Origin: Cordylochernes scorpioides
Lineage: Eukaryota > Arthropoda > Arachnida > Pseudoscorpiones > Chernetidae
DNA length: 64,000 nt
NCBI GenBank assembly: GCA_030710605.1
Contig: CP092870.1
Coordinates: 50,127,061-50,191,060, forward strand
Direction: 5' to 3'
The notes beneath the pieces are model-generated. The model saw only the letters and a program-made list of their open reading frames with translations, was not told the origin of the DNA and ran no database searches. This document shows, one piece after another, positions 25-58,749 of the stretch (its first letter is position 1; every line of letters begins with the position of its first letter). Both the position numbers and the translations under genes were made by a program.

Positions 25-640
25 TGATCCTTCGTGTGTTCAGTAGTATATAACGGGCCTAAAATCCTGGCCGATTCTAAATTAAAGACGTCCTTTGAAG
101 AGGTCCATCAGTCCAAGATAAAATACTCTTGCGGAGCCATTTGTCTTCCGGACAATGCCATCGACTTCTTTTCATTAACAATTTATTACTCTTTCCGCTC
201 CATCGGCCAAATTGGCTTCTTTCAATATTGTCCTATCGCCATAATTAAATCTTTCCCCGTGAAATTAGCCGGAAACTTGGAGCTTGCAACCGTTTTTAAC
301 TTCTTCTCAGTATGGACATAATATGATGTTTTATATTTTAACGTTGTACTATCTCTCTTGAGTTTCAAACAAATAAGCTACCAAATAAATTCTCTGTGTT
401 TATACAAATAGGCCACGCGGAAAAAAACTACAAATATCATTATATACTATGAAAAAGGCATCTTGCGCTGCCATACATGTATGCCTCTACATTTGTCTAT
501 ACATATTTACAATAATGTTAGGCCTTAAAGAATAGACATATGGTATTAGAAATGAGAAAGAGAGAAGAAAACGAGAACAGACAACTGTGTACAGAAAAAA
601 AGAAATGTCTGGCAATATCCACAATCAACATAATATATTA
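25..640. other. no recognisable gene
   Basis: A 95-codon open frame lies at 34-321 on the plus strand, but it has no recognisable domain and looks like chance. The rest is AT-rich unique-looking DNA. Nothing else is supported here. Confidence 0.5.
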
Positions 641-1031
641 AGAAAAAGGCATCTCCTTACCGTGCAACTGAAAGTTGCTGATGGCTTGCGCCATCTATCG
701 AAATAAATATCAACTATTCTCGCTGATTTTTAATTATTGCAGAATTGGCTAAATACCCATTCTTGATTAATCAAGAAAATCTAACCACGTACGTGTTTCG
801 GGCTGTTGGCCCTCATCGGCGTGGTGCAAGCTGTACCTCAACGACCAAAAACCTGATGAAGGCCAACAGCCCAAAACGCGTACGTGGTTAGCTTTCTTTG
901 ATTAATCAAGAATGGGTATTTAGCCAATTCTGCAATAATTAAAAATCAACGATAATAGTTGATATTTATTCCGATAGATGGCGCAAACCATCAGGAACTT
1001 TCAGTTACACGATAAGGAGATGAATTTTTCA
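641..1031. repeat. palindromic repeat, family A, with hammerhead motifs
   Basis: Two arms of roughly 180-190 bp are inverted copies of each other. Each begins at the outer end with a GCATCTCCTTA-like word, followed by the subterminal AGATGGCGC-type motif. The arms meet in a centre that carries hammerhead-like sequence on both strands. A 9-bp direct repeat ATAATATAT lies at 630-638 and 1031-1039 and may be the target duplication. No protein is encoded. The layout fits a non-autonomous foldback element or inverted pseudo-LTRs of a Penelope-like element; the assignment is an inference. Confidence 0.75.
781..830 (-). ncRNA. degenerate type-I hammerhead ribozyme
   Basis: On the minus strand the order is stem I (ACCAC), core CCGATGA, stem-loop GGGC-CAACA-GCCC, GAAAC, a tiny stem III, then GTA followed by CGTGG, which closes stem I. 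The core has C in place of U4 (CUGAUGA expected), so cleavage is unlikely. A second decayed copy faces it at 853-893 on the plus strand; that copy has lost G12 (CAAAAC) and the stem I pairing. Confidence 0.6.
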
Positions 1032-1254
1032 TAATATATGCATCATATCCCAGTACAATATCACATTTGTACTATTTTTTCACATCATTATATACGTTTG
1101 GTTCTTTTTATCTGCCCAAGAATTTATAATTTCTTTATAATGTCCCTGAGATGTCTATGAATAAATAAATAATACATAAAAAATATATTTAATTTTTACT
1201 TCTTTGACACTCTTTTCTTTTGTGATTATCTTTAATGATATTATTAAAAGAATG

Positions 1255-3221: not shown

Positions 3222-4527
3222 CAAGGTATGTCCCATAAGTTCCCGGACTGGGTCCATAAAAAAATAAATAAATGAAAAATGTAAATAAATTTGACAGTTT
3301 ATTATAGAAAAAAATATCTGGCAACACGGTGGTACCAATATCGAGGCGGTACGTGCGCATGCGCCAAAGTTATTCTAATTTATTTAAAGGTTACACCTTG
3401 CGCTGCGGCGATTTTACGATGGAACAAAAATTGAAGCAGAATATTTGCATAGAAATTTGTGTGAAACTTCAAATATCAGCAACCGAAACTTTTAAAATCC
3501 CTAATAAAGCATTTCCCAATGACCCCCCAAAAAGAACAACTGTTTTTGAATGACATTCTAGATTTAAAGCTGGCAGAATTTCTATTGAAGATGATCCTCG
3601 GCAAGAACGCCCAAAATGTGCAAAAAATCACCGATTTGATGAAAGAAAATCCTCGAACCACTTTGCTGGAGCTAGAGCAAGACACAGGCATCTCTAAAAC
3701 AACGATTGGAAGGATCGTAACCAAAGATTTGAAGCTCAAAAAGACTCCTGCAAAATTCATCCCAAGATTCCTCACTAATGAGCAAAAACTGTGTCGGCTT
3801 GCAACCTGTGAGAACATGTTGGAAATGACAAGAACGGATCCGGAATGGAAAGACAAGATAATCACAGGCGACGAGACATGGGTCTATGACTATGACCCTG
3901 AAACCAAGCGTCAATATGCCGAGTGGAGAGGTCAGGGTGAGCCTAGACCAAAAAAATCCAGGATATTGAAATCCAGAAACAAGGTGTTGCTGGTCGCTTT
4001 TTTGGATAACAAGGGCATTGTTCATCACGAGTATCTTCCTGCAGGCCAAACGGTTATTAAGGAAATGTATTTGGACATTCTTCGCCATCTAAGGGAAGCG
4101 ATTCGAAAAAAAAATGCCAGAAAAATGGCCTAATGGTGACTGGATCCTACACCATAACAATGCCCGCCCTCACACAGCGCACTTGATGACGAGTTTTTTT
4201 GGCTAAAAACGGGAGAGAAATCCTACCTCAACCACCCTATTCCCCAGACATCGCACCAAATGACTTTTTCCTGTTCCCCAAACTTAAAGCAGTTCTAAAA
4301 GGAAGACATTTTGACACCAGGGATGACATAATAGAAAAATCGCTGTTGGCATTGAAGAGCATTCCAAAAGAGCTCTATAAAAACTGTTTCGACAATTTGG
4401 GGAAACGATGGCGCTGGTGCGTTGAAGCAAGGGGGGATTACTTTAAAAAGTTTTAATAATTTTTTTAAAAAATAATAACCTTTTTTTTTTTATGGACCCA
4501 GTCCGGGAACTTATGGGACACACCTTG
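3222..4527 (+). mobile_element. mariner DNA transposon, complete ends
   Basis: The element is 1306 bp. Its inverted terminal repeats (3222-3259 and 4491-4527) match at all but one position and begin CAAGGTATGTCCCATAAGTT. TA dinucleotides at 3220-3221 and 4528-4529 are the expected target duplication. The interior holds a broken transposase frame. Length, TA site and the D,D34D signature all fit mariner. Well-matched ends with a damaged gene mean it could at most be mobilised in trans. Confidence 0.93.
3421..4456 (+). pseudogene. mariner transposase, frameshifted
   Basis: Translation starts at MEQKLKQNICIEICVKL (3421), shifts frame near 3500-3519, continues through 4133 and shifts again in the T-run near 4192-4198, ending ...RGDYFKKF at 4456. 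The N-terminal part has a helix-turn-helix pattern (TLLELEQDTGISKTTIGRI). The first catalytic Asp is in TGDETWVYDYDP (codon 3870-3872) and the last in APNDFFLFP (codon 4262-4264). The middle catalytic Asp of the usual HHDNARP motif is Asn here (AAC at 4156-4158). About 34 residues separate the second and third catalytic positions, as in mariner. Two frameshifts, a stop after RKMA and the Asp-to-Asn change make it inactive. In the family this enzyme cuts and pastes the element at TA sites. Confidence 0.93.
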
Positions 4528-6462: not shown

Positions 6463-6636
6463 TAATATTTTGATCCAATATATGCTTTTTTAATTAAACA
6501 TATATACCTGTTCAAGACAAAGTTACTGTATATTTAGGACAGTGTGATTTGAATATGATTTCAAATATCAAAGATAAACCATATTATAAAAAATAGTACA
6601 AATGTTAATTTATAATGGAATAAGGTGGATAAATTA

Positions 6637-6980
6637 GGGAAGAAAGGCATTTCCTTATCGGGCAACTGAAAGTTGCTGATGGCTTGCGACATCTATCGGA
6701 ATAAATATCAACTATTCTCGTTGATTTTCAATTATTCCAGAATCGGCCATATACCCATTCTTGATTAATCAAGAGTTGAGGAACAGCGTGCACCACGTTG
6801 ACGAGGGCCAACAGCCCAAAACACATACGTGGTTAGTCTTTCTTGATTAATCTAGAATGTGTATTTGGCCAATTATGGAATAATTGAAAATCAACGAATA
6901 GTTTATATTTATTCCGACAGATGGCGCAAGCCATCAGTAACTTTTAGTTACACGATAAGGAGATGCCTTTTTTTCGTAAT
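6637..6980. repeat. palindromic repeat family A with decayed hammerhead
   Basis: The arms match those at 641-1031, including AGATGGCGCAAGCCATCAG on the right. The centre holds a plus-strand hammerhead-like motif at 6786-6836: CACCACG, TTGACGA, GGGC-CAACA-GCCC, AAAAC, ACATA, CGTGG. Core changes (C3 to T and G12 to A) indicate an inactive ribozyme. Confidence 0.7.
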
Positions 6981-7365
6981 ATAAACCATATTAGTGTAAA
7001 GTATCTAGTCTTTATTAGGTGTATTCCATGAGAAAATTTGAAAGATATGTGAAACTCCCAGAGACTTTAAAATTGAATAATTATTAAATTCCGAAACACT
7101 TCTGAGAATACTTTTGCTTTTTGAATATACAGCATAATCAAACAAGAAGTTGCGGACTTTCGAGTGTATTGATGTCCTGTACGTACACCACACCCTAATT
7201 TACTTTTGTATCACTTGTGAGGGTTTTAAAATGCGTCGTTAAAGGGAGGCAGAAAGACTTAGGTCTAACAGCAAGGTGCACTTTCTGCCATCTCTGAGAA
7301 AAAGGGCATCGTCACTGAGCCCAGGGTAATGATCATCCACATCCACAGACTAAGTAAGGATCAGG
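6981..7365. other. no recognisable feature
   Basis: Nothing beyond short open frames without recognisable domains. Confidence 0.4.
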
Positions 7366-13636: not shown

Positions 13637-14523
13637 ATTATACCGAAGGGATTATATTTACAACAAAGTATATCTAGTTTATAAATTTAATCACGCCTAT
13701 AATTTTGAATATGAACAAGATCACTACACACACAAGCCTTTATTAAGACATTCCGTCTTATACAGACTCCTGCTAGAAATGAATCTGAAAAGAAATGTGA
13801 AGGAGGGGAAGAAATCCTCGTTAAGAAAAGAGAAAAAGAAGAAAAGGAAGGAATATCTATGTACAAAAGACTATATACATCGTACATAGAACACAGTGAA
13901 GAAGAAGAGTACTGAGTAAATGGTTGTATCTTGTGAAGACAAAAATATTTCCACACAGTTCAGTTACTTTGTTAGGTCTTTTTTCCTCCTTGAAGTCTTG
14001 AAAAATTGAAGAACTTTAAAATAGCTGACTCATTATCCATCAAGTCCGAAAGAAAGGAATACAGCGAAAAGTGAATAAGATCACTATAAACTACCACATG
14101 ATATCACCCACATCAAACATCTTCGAAATAGAACAAAGATTTACTGGTCGAAGTATCTTTATGAATGCCGGCCAGGCAACCTCTATCTTTACGAAATAAT
14201 ACAATTATAAAACACGTTTTCCTTACCATAAATTACTTTATGGAACACGTTTTTGGTACGTGAGTGTTATTTCTAACCCTATTTTCTTCAAAAATAAAAG
14301 TTTAGAAAATGGGCCCATTTTTAACATTCCAAACTTTGTTTTTGTTTCCAGGAGAAAGTCTTTTTTCTATTTTATAAGCATTTAACTTCCAAAATTAGGC
14401 AAAAGTCGCTGTGATAAATACATTTATAGTAATTTACTCCGATCATCCGTTACATTATTAGGTAGAATAGACAATATTAAGCATTTTTCATAATACTAAA
14501 ATAGTATAGATTATTATAGAAGC
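13637..14523. other. unassigned; short repeats only
   Basis: The segment 13725-13790 repeats the 2470-2560 sequence. GAATGCCGGCCAGGC at about 14163-14177 recurs at 18127. No gene was seen. Confidence 0.4.
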
Positions 14524-14740
14524 ATAGGGCACCTCTCCCGTCAAAATAAACGTCAAAACTAGACGCCATCTATTGACCGTCGCCGCAAACTAGCGGCCTC
14601 GAGTCGGTGACAAAGCCACAAAACCAGCTTTGGCAAACTGAATAACGTTCACCTAGAGACCATGGTTTCAGGCTAATGGCCCTCGTCAGTCTAGAGCGTC
14701 AGGTTTTTACGTTTATTTTGACGAGAGAGGCGCCCTATGT
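14524..14740. repeat. palindromic repeat family B with hammerhead
   Basis: The terminal inverted repeats are GGGCACCTCTCCCGTCAAAA on the left and TTTTGACGAGAGAGGCGCCC on the right. Inside the left end lies GACGCCATCTATTGACC, the reverse of the shared AGATGGCG motif, and GTCGGTGACAAAGCCAC. The right half carries the hammerhead ribozyme. Non-coding. Confidence 0.75.
14651..14700 (-). ncRNA. type-I hammerhead ribozyme, all core bases present
   Basis: Minus-strand reading: stem I 5' strand CTCTAGA; core CTGACGA (14689-14683); stem II GGGC-CAUUA-GCCU; GAA (14669-14667); stem III ACC-AU-GGU; then C17 at 14658; then UCUAGG, which closes stem I with six pairs, one of them G-U. C3, U4, G5, A6, G8, A9, G12, A13, A14, A15.1, U16.1 and C17 are all as in the consensus. 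Self-cleavage is predicted 3' of 14658 on the minus transcript. Stem III is only three pairs, as in small hammerheads known from Penelope-like elements and retrozymes. Confidence 0.85.
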
Positions 14741-15049
14741 TTCTATGGATCAATTTTCTCCCGGATAATTTTCCACCTATATGATTATTATGTCTCGAAA
14801 TGATTAAAATGGTCAAAAATGAACATTTTCGCAACAAAATATATATATTTCGCGTATTCGAAGCAAGGCTCAATTGTATAAAATAAATTTATTCAACAAC
14901 GAGATGAGAAAACCCATCAGGCTAATTCTTAGGCAGATTTGATCAAAGAGGCTTCCTGAGAAATCAAGAACCAGCATTCAAGTCCCAATTTGAGTAATTA
15001 GACTGATGGTTAAATATAAGAAAAAATTGTCAGGTGTTGGTAATATAAA

Positions 15050-15375
15050 CAAAAAAAGGCAAATATGACCAGTCACATAAGCATTTTAGATGGGAGAGCG
15101 TCATCTAGTGGAATTATACCCATTAAATGCTCGTATCTTGATTTCTCAGGAAGCCTCTTAGGCCAAATTTTTGGACGGCGAAGTACAGCCTGCCCCACGC
15201 TAACGAGGGCCAACAGCACCAAACGCGTTCGTGGTCGACTTTTCCTGATTTATCAAGGAAATGTGTTATCCATACATCACAAGGAACAGGCCTAAATCAA
15301 CATTTAGTTTATTTTTGTTCCACTAGATGGCGCTCTGTTATCAAAAATGCTCATGCCAGTGGTCAGGTTGTTTAT
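15050..15375. repeat. palindromic repeat family A2 with decayed hammerhead
   Basis: The arms hold AGCATTTTAGATGGGAGAGCG on the left and AGATGGCGCTCTGTTATC on the right, with CTTGATTTCTC near the centre. The plus-strand hammerhead-like unit is at 15188-15238: CCCACG, CTAACGA, GGGC-CAACA-GCAC, CAAAC, GCGTT, CGTGG. G5 to A and loss of G12 predict no activity. Confidence 0.65.
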
Positions 15376-24050: not shown

Positions 24051-24284
24051 ATTAAAAATAAAGAAGGCATCTCCTGACCACAAGCACATGTGCTTTTTAG
24101 ATGGCAGAGCGCCATCTAGTGGAGTAAAAATAAACTAAACGTTTATTTAGCTTACTCTGGGTTGGCCAAATATCTCGGAGTAAGCTAAATAAACGTTTAG
24201 TTTATTTTTACTCCACTAGATGGCGCTCTGCCATCTAAAAAGCACATGTGCTTGTGGTCAGGAGATGCCTTCTTTATTTTTAAT
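24051..24284. repeat. near-perfect palindrome, family A2
   Basis: The arms (about 24051-24157 and 24178-24284) are inverted copies with essentially no mismatches, around a spacer of about 20 bp containing GGTTGGCCAAATATCT. Each arm has GGCATCTCCTGACCAC, GCACATGTGC and the AGATGGCGCTCTGCCATCT motif. It lacks the hammerhead present in the related copies at 15050-15375 and 54350-54720. Confidence 0.88.
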
Positions 24285-24569
24285 ATCAACACCTGACCCA
24301 CTTATCTTTCATTTTTTCTATTGTTTTTTCATATTTGCTTATATATATTATAGAGAGGTAAATGTTGAGTGTAATTATACAAATATTTATGTCAGGACAA
24401 TTTAATCAGGTATGATATTCATTACTGCACCAAACAGTGTACATCATCAAATGCGGTTTGAGCGAGTTTACACAACTATAATTCCAGCCGTACAATAAAC
24501 TACTGGCTGTGGTGATATACGCTAGCTGACCACCCTCCATTCCTAACCGGCCCTCGAGACGTCACTATA

Positions 24570-26520: not shown

Positions 26521-28800
26521 TCAATCATTCCTCCAGGGATAAGTGTCTTTTCAAAAACATTTTTATTATTCTCTAGCTTTCGGGCACGGACGTCCTTCTA
26601 CAGGAGAAAACTTTGTATAATGATACGCCAATAGAACACGTGTTAAATATAATCGGATACTGTTTTACATAATTTTATGAAGTTCTATAGATATATAAAT
26701 ATTTTCATATTAACTATTATACAAATTGAGACGAAATATTTTAAATATACCATATATGGTATATATATCTAATAAGAGGATAAACAAATAAATAAATATA
26801 GGCCACTAGAGAATAACTAAGGAAGCAAGGAATACATATCAGACTAGTTATCATTATTAGGTCTATATAAATTTTATGAACTCTGTCGAATAATCCATGT
26901 AAATTTTTAAATATTTAATTCTAAGTTCTAATATGTTTGTTGGTTTTCTCTGTAATAGGCGCAAATATTAATTTGGAACTTCATATAATTTTGGGAAATT
27001 GATATTTTCCAGAGTTTATGCTGTTAAAGGCTTTGGAAGAAGACCAACTTTATAAAGATAATAATGTATGTAAAGCGCATTTTTGGTCAATTGAGTTTAT
27101 AATAATTCAAAATCGCATGTTAACACACACACAATAATGAAGAAAATAAATTTTCCTCATTGTTCAACTCCAAGTTTCGGATGGCTTGCGCCAACTGTAC
27201 AAATAAATAACAACCAATCGTTGAATTATTCCAGAATTGGCCAAATTTCTTGATTTATCAAGCAAAGCTAACCACGTACGTGTTTCTTACTTTTAGTTGC
27301 ACGATCACACACACGCAAGAAATGCCTTTTTCTTTCTTGATTTATCCACCTGATCCAAGTACAAATGCAACTTTGTACTATTTCTTACATAAAGAAAAAA
27401 TGTCTGTTGTTTTACAAAGCGATTTTGTTTGTGCGTTCTTGAAGTGATCTTACAGTATACCAATATATGGAGCTGAACTTCAGAGGAATTTATGAATAAG
27501 ATTGTATTTGACGCTAGGATTTGGAATAACACAATATTGCTTTCATATTTAACCTGGTTTGATCCTAACGTTTGAGTAATCTCTTAATTCTTTCTAGCTT
27601 ATTACTGCCCCGGTAGTGTACAATAGAAGCTTTGATATGTAATTCGTTTTTTCTATTCAAACTTTTGGTCTATACGCATATTTTCTGATAAAATAATCGG
27701 ATATTTATATTGAAACTGTTACATCGCTAGATAGAGGTGTAGCCAGGATGTTGACAAAATTGCTTCTATTAGGCCACGGACTTAAGAAATAGAGTTTATT
27801 AGAAATAAACATACCATACAATACCCTACTGACTGACTGACTACTAGCAAAATTGTGCCGCTATATATCTACACATTCCTAAAGCAATAATTGAGTATGC
27901 AAAGAGGATATTTATATTTCTACAAATACCCAAGCATGCAAATATACTACAGAAATAATTCCCTTGTAATACTTTGACTTTCGCTTTTAAAATCGTATAA
28001 TGTAAGGGCAACAAATCTTTATTATTTTATGGGAGATTTGCCAACTGTCGACTTGTGTAGAGCACATAACTAAGAAACTAAAATTCAATAATGTCCTCAT
28101 GTGGGTTATCTCTATGTAAAAATTCTTATAAATTTATATATAATATTTTTAAATTATTATCTCCTAAATATATATATAAATATAATATTTATTCCAAAAT
28201 ATATGTCGATTTTAATTTAAATATAAATTGCTCTCAATATTTCTTATAATAAATTATAAAGATGGCGTTCAGCCAACCAAAATATTGGGAAAGCAATCTT
28301 TTCATTCAATCTAATATATAGGTCTTTTTATTGTCTATATATATGTTGTATAAAAAAATGAGATTTGTTGATTTTTGATCATCTTGAGGATTTTGCTATG
28401 TTAATGCAGTCGTGGTTAAAATCTTTAAAATAAAAATAGTTAAAATAATAAATATTAGAAATATCTTTAATTGAGCTTATGGGATATGTAAAAACATAAT
28501 TTGATAAAAATTACTGCCTGGCTTAAGGCGAGTAGAACAAGAAAAACAAAAGATTATTTACATAATGTACAAACGGTTTGAGCCGGCCATCGGGAAACAA
28601 CAACAATGGTTTTTTATAGGGGAAGCATGACTTCTGGCGGTTGATTTAACGGAGTATTTGAATCTATGAAATATAATTTTAAATAAAATAATATTTTAAT
28701 ATAACATACATATATATGTACCAAAGAGGTGGCCCCTCATTCTTTAAATATGCATTAGAACAATGTATTTTGCTTAAATAACTTTTTTGGTAAATTTTGT
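26521..28800. other. no gene; two palindrome remnants
   Basis: A degenerate family A repeat lies at about 27160-27330 (CTAACCACGTACGTGTTTC is left but the hammerhead core is deleted), and a family E half copy (TTCAGCCAACCAAAATATTGG) at about 28265-28290. The remainder is AT-rich with no supported coding. Confidence 0.45.
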
Positions 28801-38205: not shown

Positions 38206-38950
38206 TACTACAACTCAATATAAATGGTACCCAGAAGAAAATAAAGAGCTGACTTGTCTTCTCTGTGACAACAATGTACATATTACTTGTCCTCAGGAGA
38301 CAAAATAGAATCAGAATCTGAGATTCAATATCAAAGATTATAAAACACTACGAAAGGACAGACCGGGAAAATTCGGAGGAGGACTTGCTGTTTTGATTAA
38401 AACTCTAGAAATCAAATTTAAGGAAATCGCCTATAATCAGAGTAAGCCTAGAGAAAGCACGACAGAAGCTCAGACAATAGAAATCTATCTTACACATAAA
38501 ACAATTACAATCATGAATGTTTATGACCACGATAATACTAGCATCAATACAGGCCTGATAGAGACATTAAGTGAAGCGTCTTCGGATATCGCAATCATAC
38601 TTGGTGATTTTAACGCCGAAAGACCAACTTGGGGATCACCTTTCCAGGATAACAAAGGTCAGCAGATTGAGGACATACTAACCAAACTCGACCTTACACC
38701 GTTAAATAACGAAAAGAACACCTATCTATCCAAGTCCACAGGCACAGAATCCGCAATAGACATCACAGCGATAAATTACAACATCGCACCCACAACACAA
38801 TGGAAAATTCTGAAAAGTGCAATCATTGACCACAGACCACACACAATTTTAACAACCATAAAATTCAAAATTGAGAATTTCCAACAGAATAAAAGAACAC
38901 TGGAAAAAAAATCACAGAAAAGCTTGAAGAACTGTGCAACGAAGAATTAA
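38206..38950 (+). pseudogene. LINE endonuclease domain
   Basis: The frame starts FNLLQLNINGTQKKIKEL (N-terminal Asn motif of the APE-type endonuclease), continues ITCPQETK (a Cys where I/V is common) and KDRPGKFGGGLAVLIK, then IIDHRPHTI and, between them, AIILGDFNAERPTWGS and SAIDITA. These are the catalytic Glu (QET), GDFNA and DHRP motifs that nick target DNA. Stops at 38308 and a frame change near 38390 and 38945 disable it. Confidence 0.82.
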
Positions 38951-40439: not shown

Positions 40440-42135
40440 GACCGCTCCAATAGTACCAGTATTAAAAAAGGATGGTAGTGTAAGTATATGTGGTGTTCTA
40501 GATGTACAGCTAATAAAGCAATAGAATTAGATAGGTATCCCATTCCATCGATCGATGAGATATTTTCAAAATTATCTACAAGCACCGTACTTTCGACTCT
40601 AGACCTATCACAGGCTTATTTACAAGTAATATTAGCGGAAGAAGCCAAAGCTGATATTGATATAAACACAACAAAGAGGTTGTTTTCTTATAAAAGACTA
40701 CCATATGACGTAGCGGGAGCACCAAATAAATTTCAGAGGATTATGGAAGGTCTATTTGCTGATTTGCCAGGTGTGGCCTGCTACATAGAGGATATTTTGG
40801 TTGAAGGAAAAGACTTTGAAGATCATGAACAAAAGTTAGATCTAGTGTTTAGATGATTTTCAGAAAAAGGTTTAAAGTTAAACATATATAAATGTAAATT
40901 TAAAAAGAAATCGGTGGAATATTTAGGGTTTAAAATGGATAAATATGGACTGCATCCCTTAGAAAATAAAATTAAAGCAGTGACAGAGACGCGTGAACCT
41001 AAAGAATGTTTCGCAATTAAGATCTTTCATAGGACTCTTAATTTATTATTATAGATTCATAAAGAATATAGCAAACATTTTAGCGCTATTCTATCAACTT
41101 TTGAATACAAATGTAGATGGAATTGGACGAAAGAATATCGAATGTTCTTTGAAAAATGTAAATCATTATTAATGGACTATGGACTAGGCGTAATTCTGAG
41201 TCATAGAAATGATAGAAAGGAAGAATGCACTATAGATTTTGCTTCTAGAACAGAAGCGGAAAAACGTTTCTCTCAACTAGAAAAGAAAGCGTTGAGCATA
41301 ACTTTTGGCGATGAGAAATTCAGACAATATTTACTGGGACGAAAATTTGAATTGGTCACAGACATTCGACCCTTAATTCATATATTTTCACCTCATAAAC
41401 CAATTCCCATATGTGCATCATCCAGAATTAAAATATGGTCCTTAAAATTAGCTGCATTTAATTATACTGTGGAATTTCGAAAAACTAGTGATAATTCCAA
41501 TGTTGACGCATTGTCACGTCTACCTTTAGAATCGAGTGTCAGGGAGTCTCTTGATGAAGACCAGGTACTTCTTCTCAGGAGGTTGAATGAGGTACCGTTC
41601 TCTTTTATGGAGGTGGCATATGAGACGCCCCAAGATAAAATACTGTCTATAGTATTAAGGAATGTTAGAGAAGGCAACTCTGTGGAAATTCACAAGGGTA
41701 CCGAGAGAAAACCCACTAGCTCCTGATTATACAGATAACGGAAGACAGTTTGTCTCTGGTGAATTCGAGCAATTTACCAAAATGAATGGTATACGGTACA
41801 CTAAGACCAGTCCGTATAATCCTAGTACAAATGGTTTAGCTGAGAGATATGTAAGAGAGTTTAAAAACCTTTTGAGAAAGAATAATGGGAAGGATGATTT
41901 AGAGACGAATCTACAAAGATTCCTATTTGCTCATAGAGCATTCCCCCAAACTGTAATAAAGGAATTCCCCCGCGGAACTGCTAATGAAGAGAAGTTTAAG
42001 ATCAAGATTTTCGAATTTAATACCAAGATGGGAAATCCGCGAGAGGTATTACATGAGGCCGTAAGAAGGCAGGAGCAGTTTACTACAGTTTGCGAGGTTT
42101 ATTTCCTCAACTATGCAACTGGACCTAAACGGTAA
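40440..42135 (+). pseudogene. gypsy-like pol remnant (RT, RNase H, integrase end)
   Basis: RT: LDRYPIPSIDEIFSKLSTST, STLDLSQAYLQVILAEEA, LFSYKRLPYDVAGAPNKFQR, then CYIEDILVEG, where Glu replaces the first Asp of the usual active-site pair. After a stop: YKCKFKKKSVEYLGFKMDKYG. RNase H: CTIDFASRTEAEKRFSQLEK and FELVTDIRPLIHIF, DALSRLPL. Integrase: only the DNGRQFVSGEFEQF to NGLAERYVREFKNLL part, retaining the second Asp and the Glu. The zinc-binding head and first Asp are deleted near 41700. Inactive. Confidence 0.87.
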
Positions 42136-50715: not shown

Positions 50716-51057
50716 AAAAATAAAAATGTGAATTTTCATAAAGATTTCATCATGTCGATTTTTTTTTTGCATTTCACCTACTAAATCGATAGAGATAATT
50801 ACATTTGCAACATGAACTTAGGTATATTGACTAAATAGAAAACTGCATAGTAATAAAGATCATTTTTTAAAGGCACCATATCGTTTTTTTTTTTTCAATA
50901 AAATCGAAACAAAAAAAATTCACAAAAAAATGACCTTATAACTTTCCGCAAATGGTCACACGGCCAGTGAATATATAAGTAAATAGATAAATATATAGAT
51001 ATATATTCTAAACTGCGGTAATATGTGCAAAACGGTATAATATATATATATAATATA

Positions 51058-51614
51058 ATATAATAAATAGTTGTTTAGTTTTATAGTTTAGTTTTGTATT
51101 AAAATTATCTTTATTTCTTTGATTATTTAAATTCAAATTATAAAATTTGTAAATTGTTATTAATTAATAGAGAGAGAGAGAAAAAAAAATCCTTTACTTC
51201 TTACACATCATCCATATATATTTATAATTAATAACAATAAAATTTAACAACGTAACGTCTTTTGCAGTCGGCTTTTACACGTCATTTAGACATACTCTAA
51301 TTTGTATTATGTATTGTAGTATATATGTATTGTATTAATATATGTATTGTATTATAGAATATAGAATTCTATATACAAATTAGAGTATGTCTAAATGACG
51401 TGTAAAAGCCGACTGCAAAAGACGTTACGTTGTTAAATTTTATTGTTATTAATTATAAATATATATGGATGATGTGTAAGAAGTAAAGGATTTTTTTTTC
51501 TCTCTCTCTCTATTAATTAATAACAATTTACAAATTTTATAATTTGAATTTAAATAATCAAAGAAATAAAGATAATTTTAATACAAAACTAAACTATAAA
51601 ACTAAACAACTATT
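51058..51614. repeat. large near-perfect palindrome
   Basis: Arms of about 250 bp (51058-51306 and 51366-51614) match to the base, including a GA run of 11 and the following run of nine A, around a spacer of about 55 bp rich in GTATTGTA. There is no coding and no second copy in the window. The identical homopolymers mean it is either very recent, actively homogenised, or an assembly artefact. Confidence 0.88.
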
Positions 51615-52242
51615 TATTTTTATAATTAATTTAGATTTAGCTTGCTAATCTAATCAAATCTACTTGATATAAATTATCATTCTTATCAGTTTACTCTTTA
51701 AATTTTAAATATAGAATCACTATTATATTTTTATTATATAGTTTTTACACTATATAATATAATATATATAATATAACGGTATAATAACGGTATAAAGAAA
51801 TAATGAGCCAATCGTTCAAATATAAAATATAATATAATATATAATATAATATATAATAATATAAATAATAATATAAAATATAATATATAATATAATACAA
51901 TAAAATATAAATGAGATAATAAAAATTAAATTTCTATTTAATGAATTACATATTTTATTCTTATAAAGATTATCGATTAAAGGTACTTATATATATTTAA
52001 AGGTTCTCATAAAGGTTACCGATTTAAAAGTTTATTTGATTTTATTTAAAGAAACATATTTTCATTTAAGTTTTGTTATTTATTTTAAAAGATTAAGTAA
52101 TTGTGCAAAACGATAATTGCCTTAAAAAGAAATTGTCTTAAAAAAAAAAAAGAAACATTCGCGGTGATTTTGTCTTGCATTCGTTTATACAATTATTATA
52201 TATATTGGCATCATATATTAACTTTATTAACGGAAAAATATG
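51615..52242. other. AT-rich low-complexity DNA
   Basis: Dense ATATAATATA-type runs at about 51740-51910. No genes. Confidence 0.6.
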
Positions 52243-54349: not shown

Positions 54350-54720
54350 AAAAAGTATAAAAAGGTCAGGTGTTGCGATTAAAAATACAAAAGGCATATC
54401 CTCACTGTGTTCACATGCACATTTCTAGATGGCAGAGCGCACATGAAAAGCGTATTTACGTAAACTTGGCCTTAAATAGCCATTTCTTGATTTCTCAGGA
54501 AGCCTCTGAAACCAAATATTTGGTGGTGAAGGTACAGTCTGCACCACGCTGACGAGGGAAAACAGCCCGAAACGCGAACGTGGTTGGCTTTGAAATTGGA
54601 TCAGCCAAAATATCACGGAACAAGTTAAATAAACGTTTAGCCTATTTTTGTTCCACTAGATGGCGCTCTGCCATCTAGAGATGCTCATGTGAGCACGTGT
54701 CTATAGTGGATTTGTATAAA
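54350..54720. repeat. palindromic repeat family A2 with near-intact hammerhead
   Basis: Arms: CACATTTCTAGATGGCAGAG on the left; CACTAGATGGCGCTCTGCCA, then AGAGATGCTCATGTGAGCAC on the right. In the centre at 54541-54592 (plus): CACCACG, CTGACGA, GGG-AAAACAG-CCC, GAAAC, GCGAA, CGTGG. All core bases match except U16.1, which is A. Confidence 0.75.
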
Positions 54721-56065: not shown

Positions 56066-56125
56066 CATTGCTTAAACATCCTATTTATTGTGAACATATT
56101 AACCAAAATAAATTATAATTTATGT

Positions 56126-56337
56126 AAAAGGCATCTCCTTATCGTGCAACTGAAAGTTGCTGATGGCTTGCGCCATCTATCGGAATAAATATCAACTATT
56201 CTCGTTGATTTTTAATTATTCCAAAATTGGCCAAATACCCATTCTTGATTAATCAATAAAAACTAACCACGGACGCGTTTCGGGCTGTTGGCCCTCATCA
56301 GCGTGGTGCAAGCTGTACCTCAACGACTAAAAAACTG
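56126..56337. repeat. palindromic repeat family A, left half
   Basis: It runs from AAAAGGCATCTCCTTATCG through GCGCCATCTATCGG to the centre and stops at GACTAAAAAACTGG; the other arm is absent. It carries the intact hammerhead core. A second partial left end follows at 56455-56511. Confidence 0.75.
56266..56310 (-). ncRNA. type-I hammerhead ribozyme, all core bases present
   Basis: Minus-strand order: stem I ACCACG (56307-56302); core CTGATGA (56301-56295); stem II GGGC-CAACA-GCCC; GAA (56281-56279); A15.1-C ... G-U16.1 with a two-base loop; C17 at 56272; stem I CGTGGT (56271-56266). Six perfect pairs close stem I. Every consensus core base is kept. Cleavage is predicted between 56272 and 56271. 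The two-pair stem III suggests that it would work best as a dimer, as known for newt satellite and Penelope-associated hammerheads. Confidence 0.87.
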
Positions 56338-56454
56338 GTCATTCAGGTATCCTGAAAAATCATGAAACGGATAGTTAAGGCCAGAATTGCGTGAGACCGC
56401 GACACATTATGAAAAGATAGTACAAATGTGATATTGTACTGGGATAAAGTGGAT

Positions 56455-56590
56455 AAATTATGAAAAAGGCATATTTTTATCGTGCAACTGAAAGTTGCTG
56501 ATGGCTGATGTTGTTGTTGCTTATTCCTCAAGTCGTTTAAACGATCTCCATTAGATTCCATCGTCTCAGCTTTTAAGAAATTATAATAGA
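56455..56590. repeat. family A end joined to LINE-3 tail
   Basis: AAAAAGGCATATTTTTATCG and GAAAGTTGCTGATGGC (family A left end) break off at 56511, and a minus-strand LINE-3 3' end (GTTGTTGTTGCTTATTCCTC to CTCAGCTTTT) follows directly, so a LINE-3 copy probably inserted here. Confidence 0.65.
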
Positions 56591-58202: not shown

Positions 58203-58749
58203 ACAACAACATCAACATCCGCCCCAAAATGTGGACAGGTTACACTTACATCGCTCGCTCAAGTCCATCTGAGGACTTTTCCGGGCTCATCTTAAGAAGG
58301 TTCAGTGAAAAGGTGGAGGAAATATCTTTATTTACGGGGCTGCTAACCAAATGAATGATTTTTGAGCCCCGATAGACGCAAAGGTAATAGACCACAGCTA
58401 CACCCGGTGTTCCCAGGTGGTCACCCTCCCAAGTACTGACCGACATTGCTTAACTTGGGTGATCGGAAGAGAACCGGTGTTTTCAATGTGGTATGACCGT
58501 AGGCATTATGCAAAAGGTGAGTCTGGTAAGGAGAGCAAGTCAAGAGGTGAGTCCCAGATATGTACAGTGATACTGTAGTGAGCAGATAGTTAAAGAAAGG
58601 TTATGAAAGCATAAATTGGAAGAGAACATTAGAGTTATAATACAGTTACAAGTTCATGGGCTGCCAGGGGAATGATGTGGGGATTTAATTATTTTATTTA
58701 TTTACTTATTCATTTTTATTTATTTATTTATCTTTTTTTTTTTTTCGTT
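58203..58749. mobile_element. 547-bp insert containing 5S-rRNA-derived sequence
   Basis: Flanked by a 14-bp duplication, as expected for LINE-mobilised retroposons. The left end is ACAACAACATCAACATCC; the right end is a TTTA-rich tract followed by about 14 T. A minus-strand 5S rRNA-like segment lies in the middle. Neither end is a normal A tail for the 5S orientation, so the orientation of the retroposon is unresolved. A SINE3-like (5S-headed) element or a retroposed 5S unit with spacer are both possible. Confidence 0.6.
58388..58504 (-). pseudogene. 5S rRNA-derived sequence
   Basis: The minus strand starts GCCTACGGTCATACCACA and continues CCGGTTCTCTTCCGATCACC, AAGTTAAGCAATGTCGGTCA, GTACTTGGGAGGGTGACC and CCTGGGAACACCGGGTGT, the full 5S order including the internal promoter region. 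It lacks a few bases before AGTACTTGG, and its 3' strand (GTAGCTGTGGTC) no longer pairs cleanly with the 5' end. No T-run terminator follows directly. Confidence 0.85.

What the first reader, a model, noticed from the sequence alone, without database searches (positions are those of the whole stretch)
56266..56310. Apparently intact small hammerhead ribozyme inside a palindromic repeat (family A)
Seen: minus-strand CTGATGA, a 4-bp stem II with a CAACA loop, GAA, a two-pair stem III, GUC, and a perfect six-pair stem I. All catalytic-core positions match the hammerhead consensus. Known: hammerheads with minimal stem III occur in newt satellites, retrozymes and Penelope-like elements and tend to cleave as dimers. 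Inferred: transcripts of this repeat self-cleave, which could generate monomer or circular RNA or define element ends. No Penelope-type RT was found in the window, so the driver is unknown.
Basis: partly seen in the sequence, partly recalled or inferred. Interest (0 to 1): 0.87.

Follow-up and report, generated by a model that had tools for sequence, protein, structure and literature searches.

The report
Hammerhead retrozymes moved by Penelope machinery
The self-cutting RNA motif is real and sits in a small mobile repeat present in thousands of copies; the ends of these copies look as if a Penelope-type retroelement inserted them, which bears on the open question of what moves this class of circular-RNA elements.

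Summary
The motif is real: minus strand 56266-56307 is an intact type I hammerhead, cut site 56272|56271. Stem III is one A-U pair plus a CGCG loop, not two pairs; its hexamer ACGCGU is self-complementary, as in newt-type hammerheads proposed to work as dimers. It lies in a one-armed 392-bp copy (56116-56507) of a ~338-nt tandem unit too short for a reverse transcriptase: a metazoan non-LTR retrozyme. The genome (2.62 Gb, unnamed) holds 9,777 exact copies of this 30-nt core; two further families have 8,774 and 8,962 (reversed-pattern controls 0). That cleavage defines element ends is not supported: insertion ends lie at two internal sites, S1 and S2 (~48 nt apart in A, ~34 in B). Two-armed copies are head-to-head, one arm ending at S1 and the other at S2 (54 of 61 examined; 6 with an end at neither site or unclear; 1 possible S1/S1), and 38 of 45 tested show target-duplication-like flanks. 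Penelope-like elements (PLEs) here end at a similar pair ~35 nt apart, the published PLE 'tail'. Most likely, PLE machinery inserts these retrozymes by two-sided target-primed reverse transcription. Ribozyme activity, circular RNA and the partner PLE are untested.

The parts
56266..56307 (-). Type I hammerhead ribozyme, family A; cleavage predicted between 56272 and 56271
56273..56278 (-). Stem III hexamer ACGCGU, self-complementary (one A-U pair + CGCG loop as monomer; 6 bp in a dimer)
56116..56507 (-). Family A retrozyme insertion, one-armed, 1.16 units of ~338 nt; outer end at S1 (56116), other end truncated at unit position 103; no clear target duplication found
634..1085 (.). Family A palindromic (head-to-head) insertion; arms 634-851 (-, ends S1) and 853-1085 (+, ends S2); hammerheads mutated; no clear target duplication (5 nt shared)
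6588..6984 (.). Older family A palindromic insertion, ends S2/S1, target duplication including ACCATATTA; hammerhead decayed
27136..27390 (.). Diverged family A relative (about 76% identical), palindromic, ends S1/S2; no clear target duplication (6 nt shared)
14516..14782 (.). Family B retrozyme palindromic insertion, ends S1/S2
14652..14695 (-). Family B hammerhead (TCTAGA CTGACGA GGGC CATTA GCCT GAA ACCATGGT C TCTAGG), self-complementary octamer in stem III
24053..24332 (.). Family C palindromic insertion without a hammerhead (truncated arms), ends S1/S2 by eye
54449..54591 (+). Diverged relative with a decayed hammerhead
15123..15257 (+). Diverged relative with a decayed hammerhead

Best explanation
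The motif is the hammerhead of a non-autonomous metazoan non-LTR retrozyme. Its transcript (tandem units, or a circle made after cleavage) is inserted by the enzyme of a Penelope-like element. Shown by sequence: intact core; tandem ~338-nt units; three families (A, B, C) sharing hammerhead architecture; insertion ends clustered at two internal sites S1 and S2; head-to-head two-armed copies with one end of each kind; target-duplication-like flanks; a similar two-site pattern of ends on PLEs of this genome. Inferred: (1) transcripts cleave, mainly as dimers through the self-complementary stem III; (2) the enzyme cuts both strands of the target and each 3' end primes reverse transcription inside the RNA, one at S1 and one at S2; (3) the cDNAs run back through the hammerhead junction, so the template is a circle or an uncleaved multimer; (4) their inner ends are joined, giving the palindrome.
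For: Ends: S1/S2 in 25 of 27 two-armed family A insertions, 19 of 22 family B, and, from core-pattern lists rather than similarity ranking, 6 of 7 family A and 4 of 5 family C read by eye. Target duplications: 22 of 25 A and 16 of 20 B share >=7 nt across the flanks, against 22% of mismatched flank pairs. Orientation: head-to-head 21, tail-to-tail 1 among opposite cores under 600 nt apart in the first 100 listed places of each family, all on contig C1 (lists; picked by eye, summed). PLE pLTR pieces in the 30 GIY-YIG loci: 10 of 21 end at the S1-type site, 10 at the S2-type site ~35 nt further, 1 elsewhere (one S2 end is the query itself); four two-armed PLE structures (L050, L052, L059, L073) have one of each by eye. 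Published PLE signature: both strands cut and extended, internal starts, tail = sequence between two start sites (PMC11167929, section 3 read whole); inverted pLTRs, 31-bp tail on one of them, 8-10 bp duplications (PMC3846280, passages). Hammerhead: A and B units align significantly only over 25 nt of the core (E 7e-5), and four of six inner stem I pairs differ on both sides yet still pair.
Against: No RNA data: neither cleavage nor circles are shown. The lowest-energy folds of the isolated hammerheads are not the catalytic fold; with the core kept unpaired they are 1.2-3.6 kcal/mol worse in the four tested (also 77). Rfam gathering thresholds are not reached. Six of 61 two-armed insertions have an end at neither site or unclear (L025, L040, L047, L017, window 15863, L119), and one duplicated locus (L105=L106=L107) may be S1/S1, with about 250 nt of other sequence between its arms and no duplication seen. 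S1 ends in L094, L103 and L104 (variant subfamily) and the left PLE end in L059 were read by eye past the alignment. No PLE with family A sequence was found in the 30 loci held. A stem around S1 is weak support: and the folds (B 23 and PLE 42 of 200 shuffles fold as well). In vitro, hammerhead mutants of one PLE did not affect insertion, and start sites did not differ between strands in pooled products (PMC11167929).
Confidence: 0.82

Rival explanations
1. The unit is the pseudo-LTR of an autonomous PLE family with a canonical hammerhead; the copies seen are remnants without the ORF rather than an independent retrozyme.
For: The insertion anatomy is that of PLE pLTRs.
Against: Tandem units follow each other directly at 338-350 nt, too short for an RT ORF; no ORF of 150 aa or more overlaps the window copy. 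In the ~3.2 kb held of each of 30 GIY-YIG loci (of 146 matches) no A-type hammerhead was seen; C-type ones in L061 and L076 look nested. PLE hammerheads here are a different, minimal type.
Confidence: 0.12
2. Palindromes arise by self-priming or template switching on one cDNA or on an antisense transcript, as proposed for Adineta Penelope (PMC3846280, passages), not by two-sided priming.
For: Head-to-head inversion is compatible with it.
Against: It does not by itself predict two different fixed outer ends in each palindrome, together with target duplications.
Confidence: 0.12
3. Passive satellite or DNA-transposon-like palindrome; the hammerhead is a relic.
For: The other family A copies of the window are mutated; family B copies look like terminal inverted repeats at first sight.
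Against: Variable inner truncation, fixed internal ends, variable unit number and the shared core argue for retrotransposition.
Confidence: 0.03

Closest known systems
Metazoan non-LTR retrozymes (Cervera and de la Pena 2020, PMC7229834; parts 1-4 of 6 and passages read)
   Same: Type I hammerhead, ~170-400-nt tandem units without ORF, thousands of copies, target duplications, axolotl-like stem III of one pair plus a palindromic tetraloop
   Different: In the parts read, insertion ends are not mapped and 'inverted' has no occurrence in the main text; PLEs are proposed as mobilisers from shared features and co-existence. Here the ends themselves carry the PLE pattern.
Penelope-like elements, including PAc of Anolis (PMC11167929, section 3)
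   Same: Two internal start sites separated by a 'tail', inverted head-to-head arms and short target duplications (these two from PMC3846280), AT-rich targets (here by eye only), type I hammerhead
   Different: PLEs encode RT and GIY-YIG endonuclease and have a minimal hammerhead; the units here are too short for that and, in A and C, have a stem I with an internal loop.
Newt satellite-DNA hammerhead (PMC6155905, passages)
   Same: Very short stem III, proposed to act as a dimer
   Different: Different sequence and host; dimer activity not tested here.
Rfam RF02275 Hammerhead_HH9
   Same: Best covariance-model match, full model length
   Different: 24.9-28 bits against a 52-bit cut-off.

Membership tests
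Hammerhead ribozyme, type I | Conserved core CUGANGA...GAA...UH with three helices, open at stem I | tested here: met
   Rfam only below gathering
Hammerhead ribozyme, type I | Helices kept by compensatory change between families | tested here: met
   Inner stem I, A to B: 4 of 6 pairs changed on both sides and still paired; stem II, A to C: one pair. Among the 7 sequences tabulated, B L084 has a C-A mismatch, C L061 has lost hexamer self-complementarity and the window 54525 relative is decayed
Hammerhead ribozyme, type I | Self-cleavage | not testable with these tools
   no RNA experiment
Metazoan non-LTR retrozyme | Short tandem units (170-400 nt) without ORF, each with a type I hammerhead | tested here: met
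   four successive 338-340-nt intervals in L015; same-strand spacings of 338-350 (A) and 319 (B) in the listed places
Metazoan non-LTR retrozyme | Circular RNA | not testable with these tools
   arms longer than one unit crossing the hammerhead junction fit a circle or an uncleaved multimer
Metazoan non-LTR retrozyme | Target duplications longer than 4 bp | tested here: met
   38 of 45 two-armed copies share >=7 nt across the flanks, control 22%
Penelope-like element | RT and GIY-YIG ORF | tested here: not met
   ~338-nt units are too short; no ORF >=150 aa over the window copy; so not filed as a PLE
PLE-type insertion (works like) | Head-to-head arms with a tail on one arm only | tested here: met
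   54 of 61; 6 with an end at neither site or unclear, 1 possible exception
PLE-type insertion (works like) | Reverse transcription starting in a stem-loop | tested here: inconclusive
   A and C have perfect 7-bp stems around S1 (74 and 42 of 2000 mononucleotide shuffles do as well), B 6 bp (158 of 2000), PLE copy L065 fails (1997 of 2000)

The most novel reading that the evidence does not exclude
One RNA carries two start sites and the two halves of a PLE enzyme dimer use one each, one per DNA strand, so every complete insertion has one S1 and one S2 end. Retrozymes of unrelated sequence have converged on this two-site module to hijack PLEs, which would identify their mobiliser and give a readable signature for it in any genome.
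Probability: 0.5. Interest if true: 0.8.

Novelty: new member of a known kind. Interest (0 to 1): 0.62.

Why it matters
What moves metazoan retrozymes is open: a 2020 review says their repeats show no conserved motif that would reveal the autonomous partner (PMC7761336, passage), and later texts say only that they may rely on PLEs or could be mobilised by LINEs or PLEs (PMC8969392, PMC11722881, passages). The ends described here are such a feature. The pairing of the two start sites within single insertions also makes a testable statement about how PLEs integrate, which products pooled over events do not show.

Tried and rejected
Rejected: hammerhead cleavage defines element ends. Rejected: this copy lies in a palindrome of its own. 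Led nowhere: Pfam PF26215 (recalled as a PLE domain) is not in the library; a DNA search with family C returned no candidates, which shows nothing since exact cores number 8,962; the taxon was not identified; papers PMC4209133, PMC8557442 and PMC5785218 are not held, so prior work on PLE hammerheads and PLE ends could not be checked there. MAFFT misplaced stem III of family B, so pairs were read with structure-anchored code. A first reading of L047 as S1/S2 was corrected: one end is at position 275. Rows dropped: L025 and L040 (A) and L017, window 15863 and the duplicates L080 and L098 (B) were left out of the flank test but are in the tally of 61, the duplicates counted once; L047 was kept. 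The 87 arms include diverged relatives, split tandem blocks and the triplicated locus L105-L107.

Full report
What is there. The minus strand at 56266-56307 is an intact type I hammerhead: six-pair stem I, CUGAUGA, four-pair stem II with a CAACA loop, GAA, ACGCGU, C. A 4-bp outer stem I after a small internal loop (3 nt and 1 nt) is also possible. A loose consensus is no more frequent than chance (8 against 4.7), but a structure-aware scan finds three motifs in the window against 0.05 expected from shuffles. Rfam reaches only RF02275 at 24.9 bits, below its cut-off. Stem III is one A-U pair with a CGCG loop; the hexamer is self-complementary. The isolated motif does not have the catalytic fold as its energy minimum, while one whole 338-nt unit folds much better than its shuffles (z -7.6).

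Family. The motif lies in a ~338-nt unit that occurs in tandem (four successive intervals of 338-340 nt in L015) and in truncated or inverted copies. Exact 30-nt cores number 9,777 in the 2.62-Gb genome. Family B (stem III ACCAUGGU, 8,774 exact 32-nt cores) and family C (stem II GCGC/GCGC, 8,962) were also found; reversed-pattern controls were 0. A and B units align significantly only over 25 nt of the hammerhead core (E 7e-5; the next match has E 1.6), while A and C are 73% identical over 278 nt. Between A and B, four of six inner stem I pairs differ on both sides and still pair; between A and C one stem II pair does. Exceptions among the seven sequences tabulated: L084 has one C-A mismatch, L061 has lost the self-complementary hexamer, and the window 54525 relative is decayed.

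Insertion anatomy. I mapped the copies with one genomic unit numbered from the cleavage site. Of 87 family A arms of at least 60 nt, 46 end at positions 145-160 (S1), 30 at 196-208 (S2) and 11 elsewhere, some of the 11 being split tandem blocks. Inner ends are scattered, with no excess at the hammerhead cut (3 of 87, 2.1 expected). Two-armed copies are head-to-head palindromes. Tally: family A from the similarity search (24 two-armed of 35 loci) plus 3 in the window, 25 of 27 S1/S2; family B, 19 of 22 (two segmental duplicates counted once; three variant S1 ends read by eye); family A from the genome-wide core list, 6 of 7; family C from that list, 4 of 5, read by eye. The other seven are six with an end at neither site or unclear and one possible S1/S1 locus. 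Outside the tally, C copies at window 24053-24332 and in L076 are S1/S2 by eye. The 35 family A loci cover the full-length matches listed other than the window's own; for B, 20 regions were taken from the 40 scored matches. The core-list sets are small (8 regions, 9) and all on contig C1; the 9 were chosen because opposite cores lay close together, without regard to their ends.

Target duplications. Flanks share at least 7 nt in 22 of 25 A and 16 of 20 B insertions, against 22% of mismatched flank pairs. Flanks often look AT-rich, which makes chance matches common, hence the control. Two of the three family A palindromes of the window itself (634, 27136) show no clear duplication.

Link to Penelope. 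GIY-YIG endonuclease sequences are abundant: 146 matches among 150 candidates scored of 17,015. Of the 30 loci held, 12 carry a PLE-type minimal hammerhead. Of 21 pLTR pieces mapped in these loci, 10 end at an S1-type site, 10 at an S2-type site about 35 nt further and 1 elsewhere. Four two-armed PLE structures show one site on each side by eye. The literature describes this for PLEs: inverted pLTRs, an optional 31-bp tail on one of them and short target duplications (PMC3846280, passages); and, for PAc, cleavage and extension of both strands, internal starts, and the tail as the sequence between two start sites (PMC11167929, section 3 whole). That paper saw no difference in start site between the strands in pooled products; the data here concern pairing within single insertions, which does not contradict it.

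Mechanism. Two-sided target-primed reverse transcription by a PLE enzyme, with one cDNA from S1 and one from S2 of retrozyme RNA, explains ends, orientation, duplications and scattered inner ends. Arms longer than a unit that cross the cut need a circular or uncleaved multimeric template. A stem enclosing S1 is seen in A (GATAAGG/CCTTATC), C (GGTCAGG/CCTGACC; two pairs differ from A on both sides) and B (CGGGAG/CTCCCG). In PLE copies that reach S2 it is perfect in L052 (CTGGCCG/CGGCCAG) and has a G-U pair in L076, but L059, L062 and L065 have a mismatch. Shuffle support is modest for A, C and B (74, 42 and 158 of 2000) and absent for the one PLE copy tested, L065 (1997 of 2000). Folding the typed stretches gives the same picture: shuffles folding as well were 1 (A), 4 (C), 23 (B) and 42 (PLE) of 200. 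The stem-loop idea therefore remains a suggestion.

Novelty. Hammerhead retrozymes, dimeric hammerheads and PLE tails are all known. In the held library I found no paper describing PLE-type ends on retrozymes (searches; of the papers listed I read parts of a few, and three relevant papers are not held). The element is a new member of a known kind; the insertion evidence is what adds to knowledge.

Noticed in passing
window 58389-58504 (-): 5S rRNA match at 74.5 bits, well above cut-off; gene or 5S-derived repeat not settled.
   Followed up: no
window 3465-4133, 38309-38950, 41055-42135: Remnants of a Transposase_1 element, a non-LTR-type endonuclease and a retroelement RNase H with a weak integrase match below Pfam's cut-off.
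   Followed up: partly
L105, L106, L107 (start of contig C1): Three copies of one complex locus within 0.4 Mb, a segmental duplication holding two family A arms around about 250 nt of another repeat.
   Followed up: partly
L081 and L098 (C13, about 19 kb apart): The two loci have similar flanks but differ in antisense arm length (89 versus 409 nt, a difference of one unit), as if unit number changed after duplication.
   Followed up: no
L044:3100-3290: One-armed C-like insertion whose 5' end lies within the hammerhead core, with an apparent target duplication by eye.
   Followed up: no
window 51041-51639: Large inverted repeat, arms 278 nt, 95% complementary, 43 nt apart; no family A match there.
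   Followed up: no
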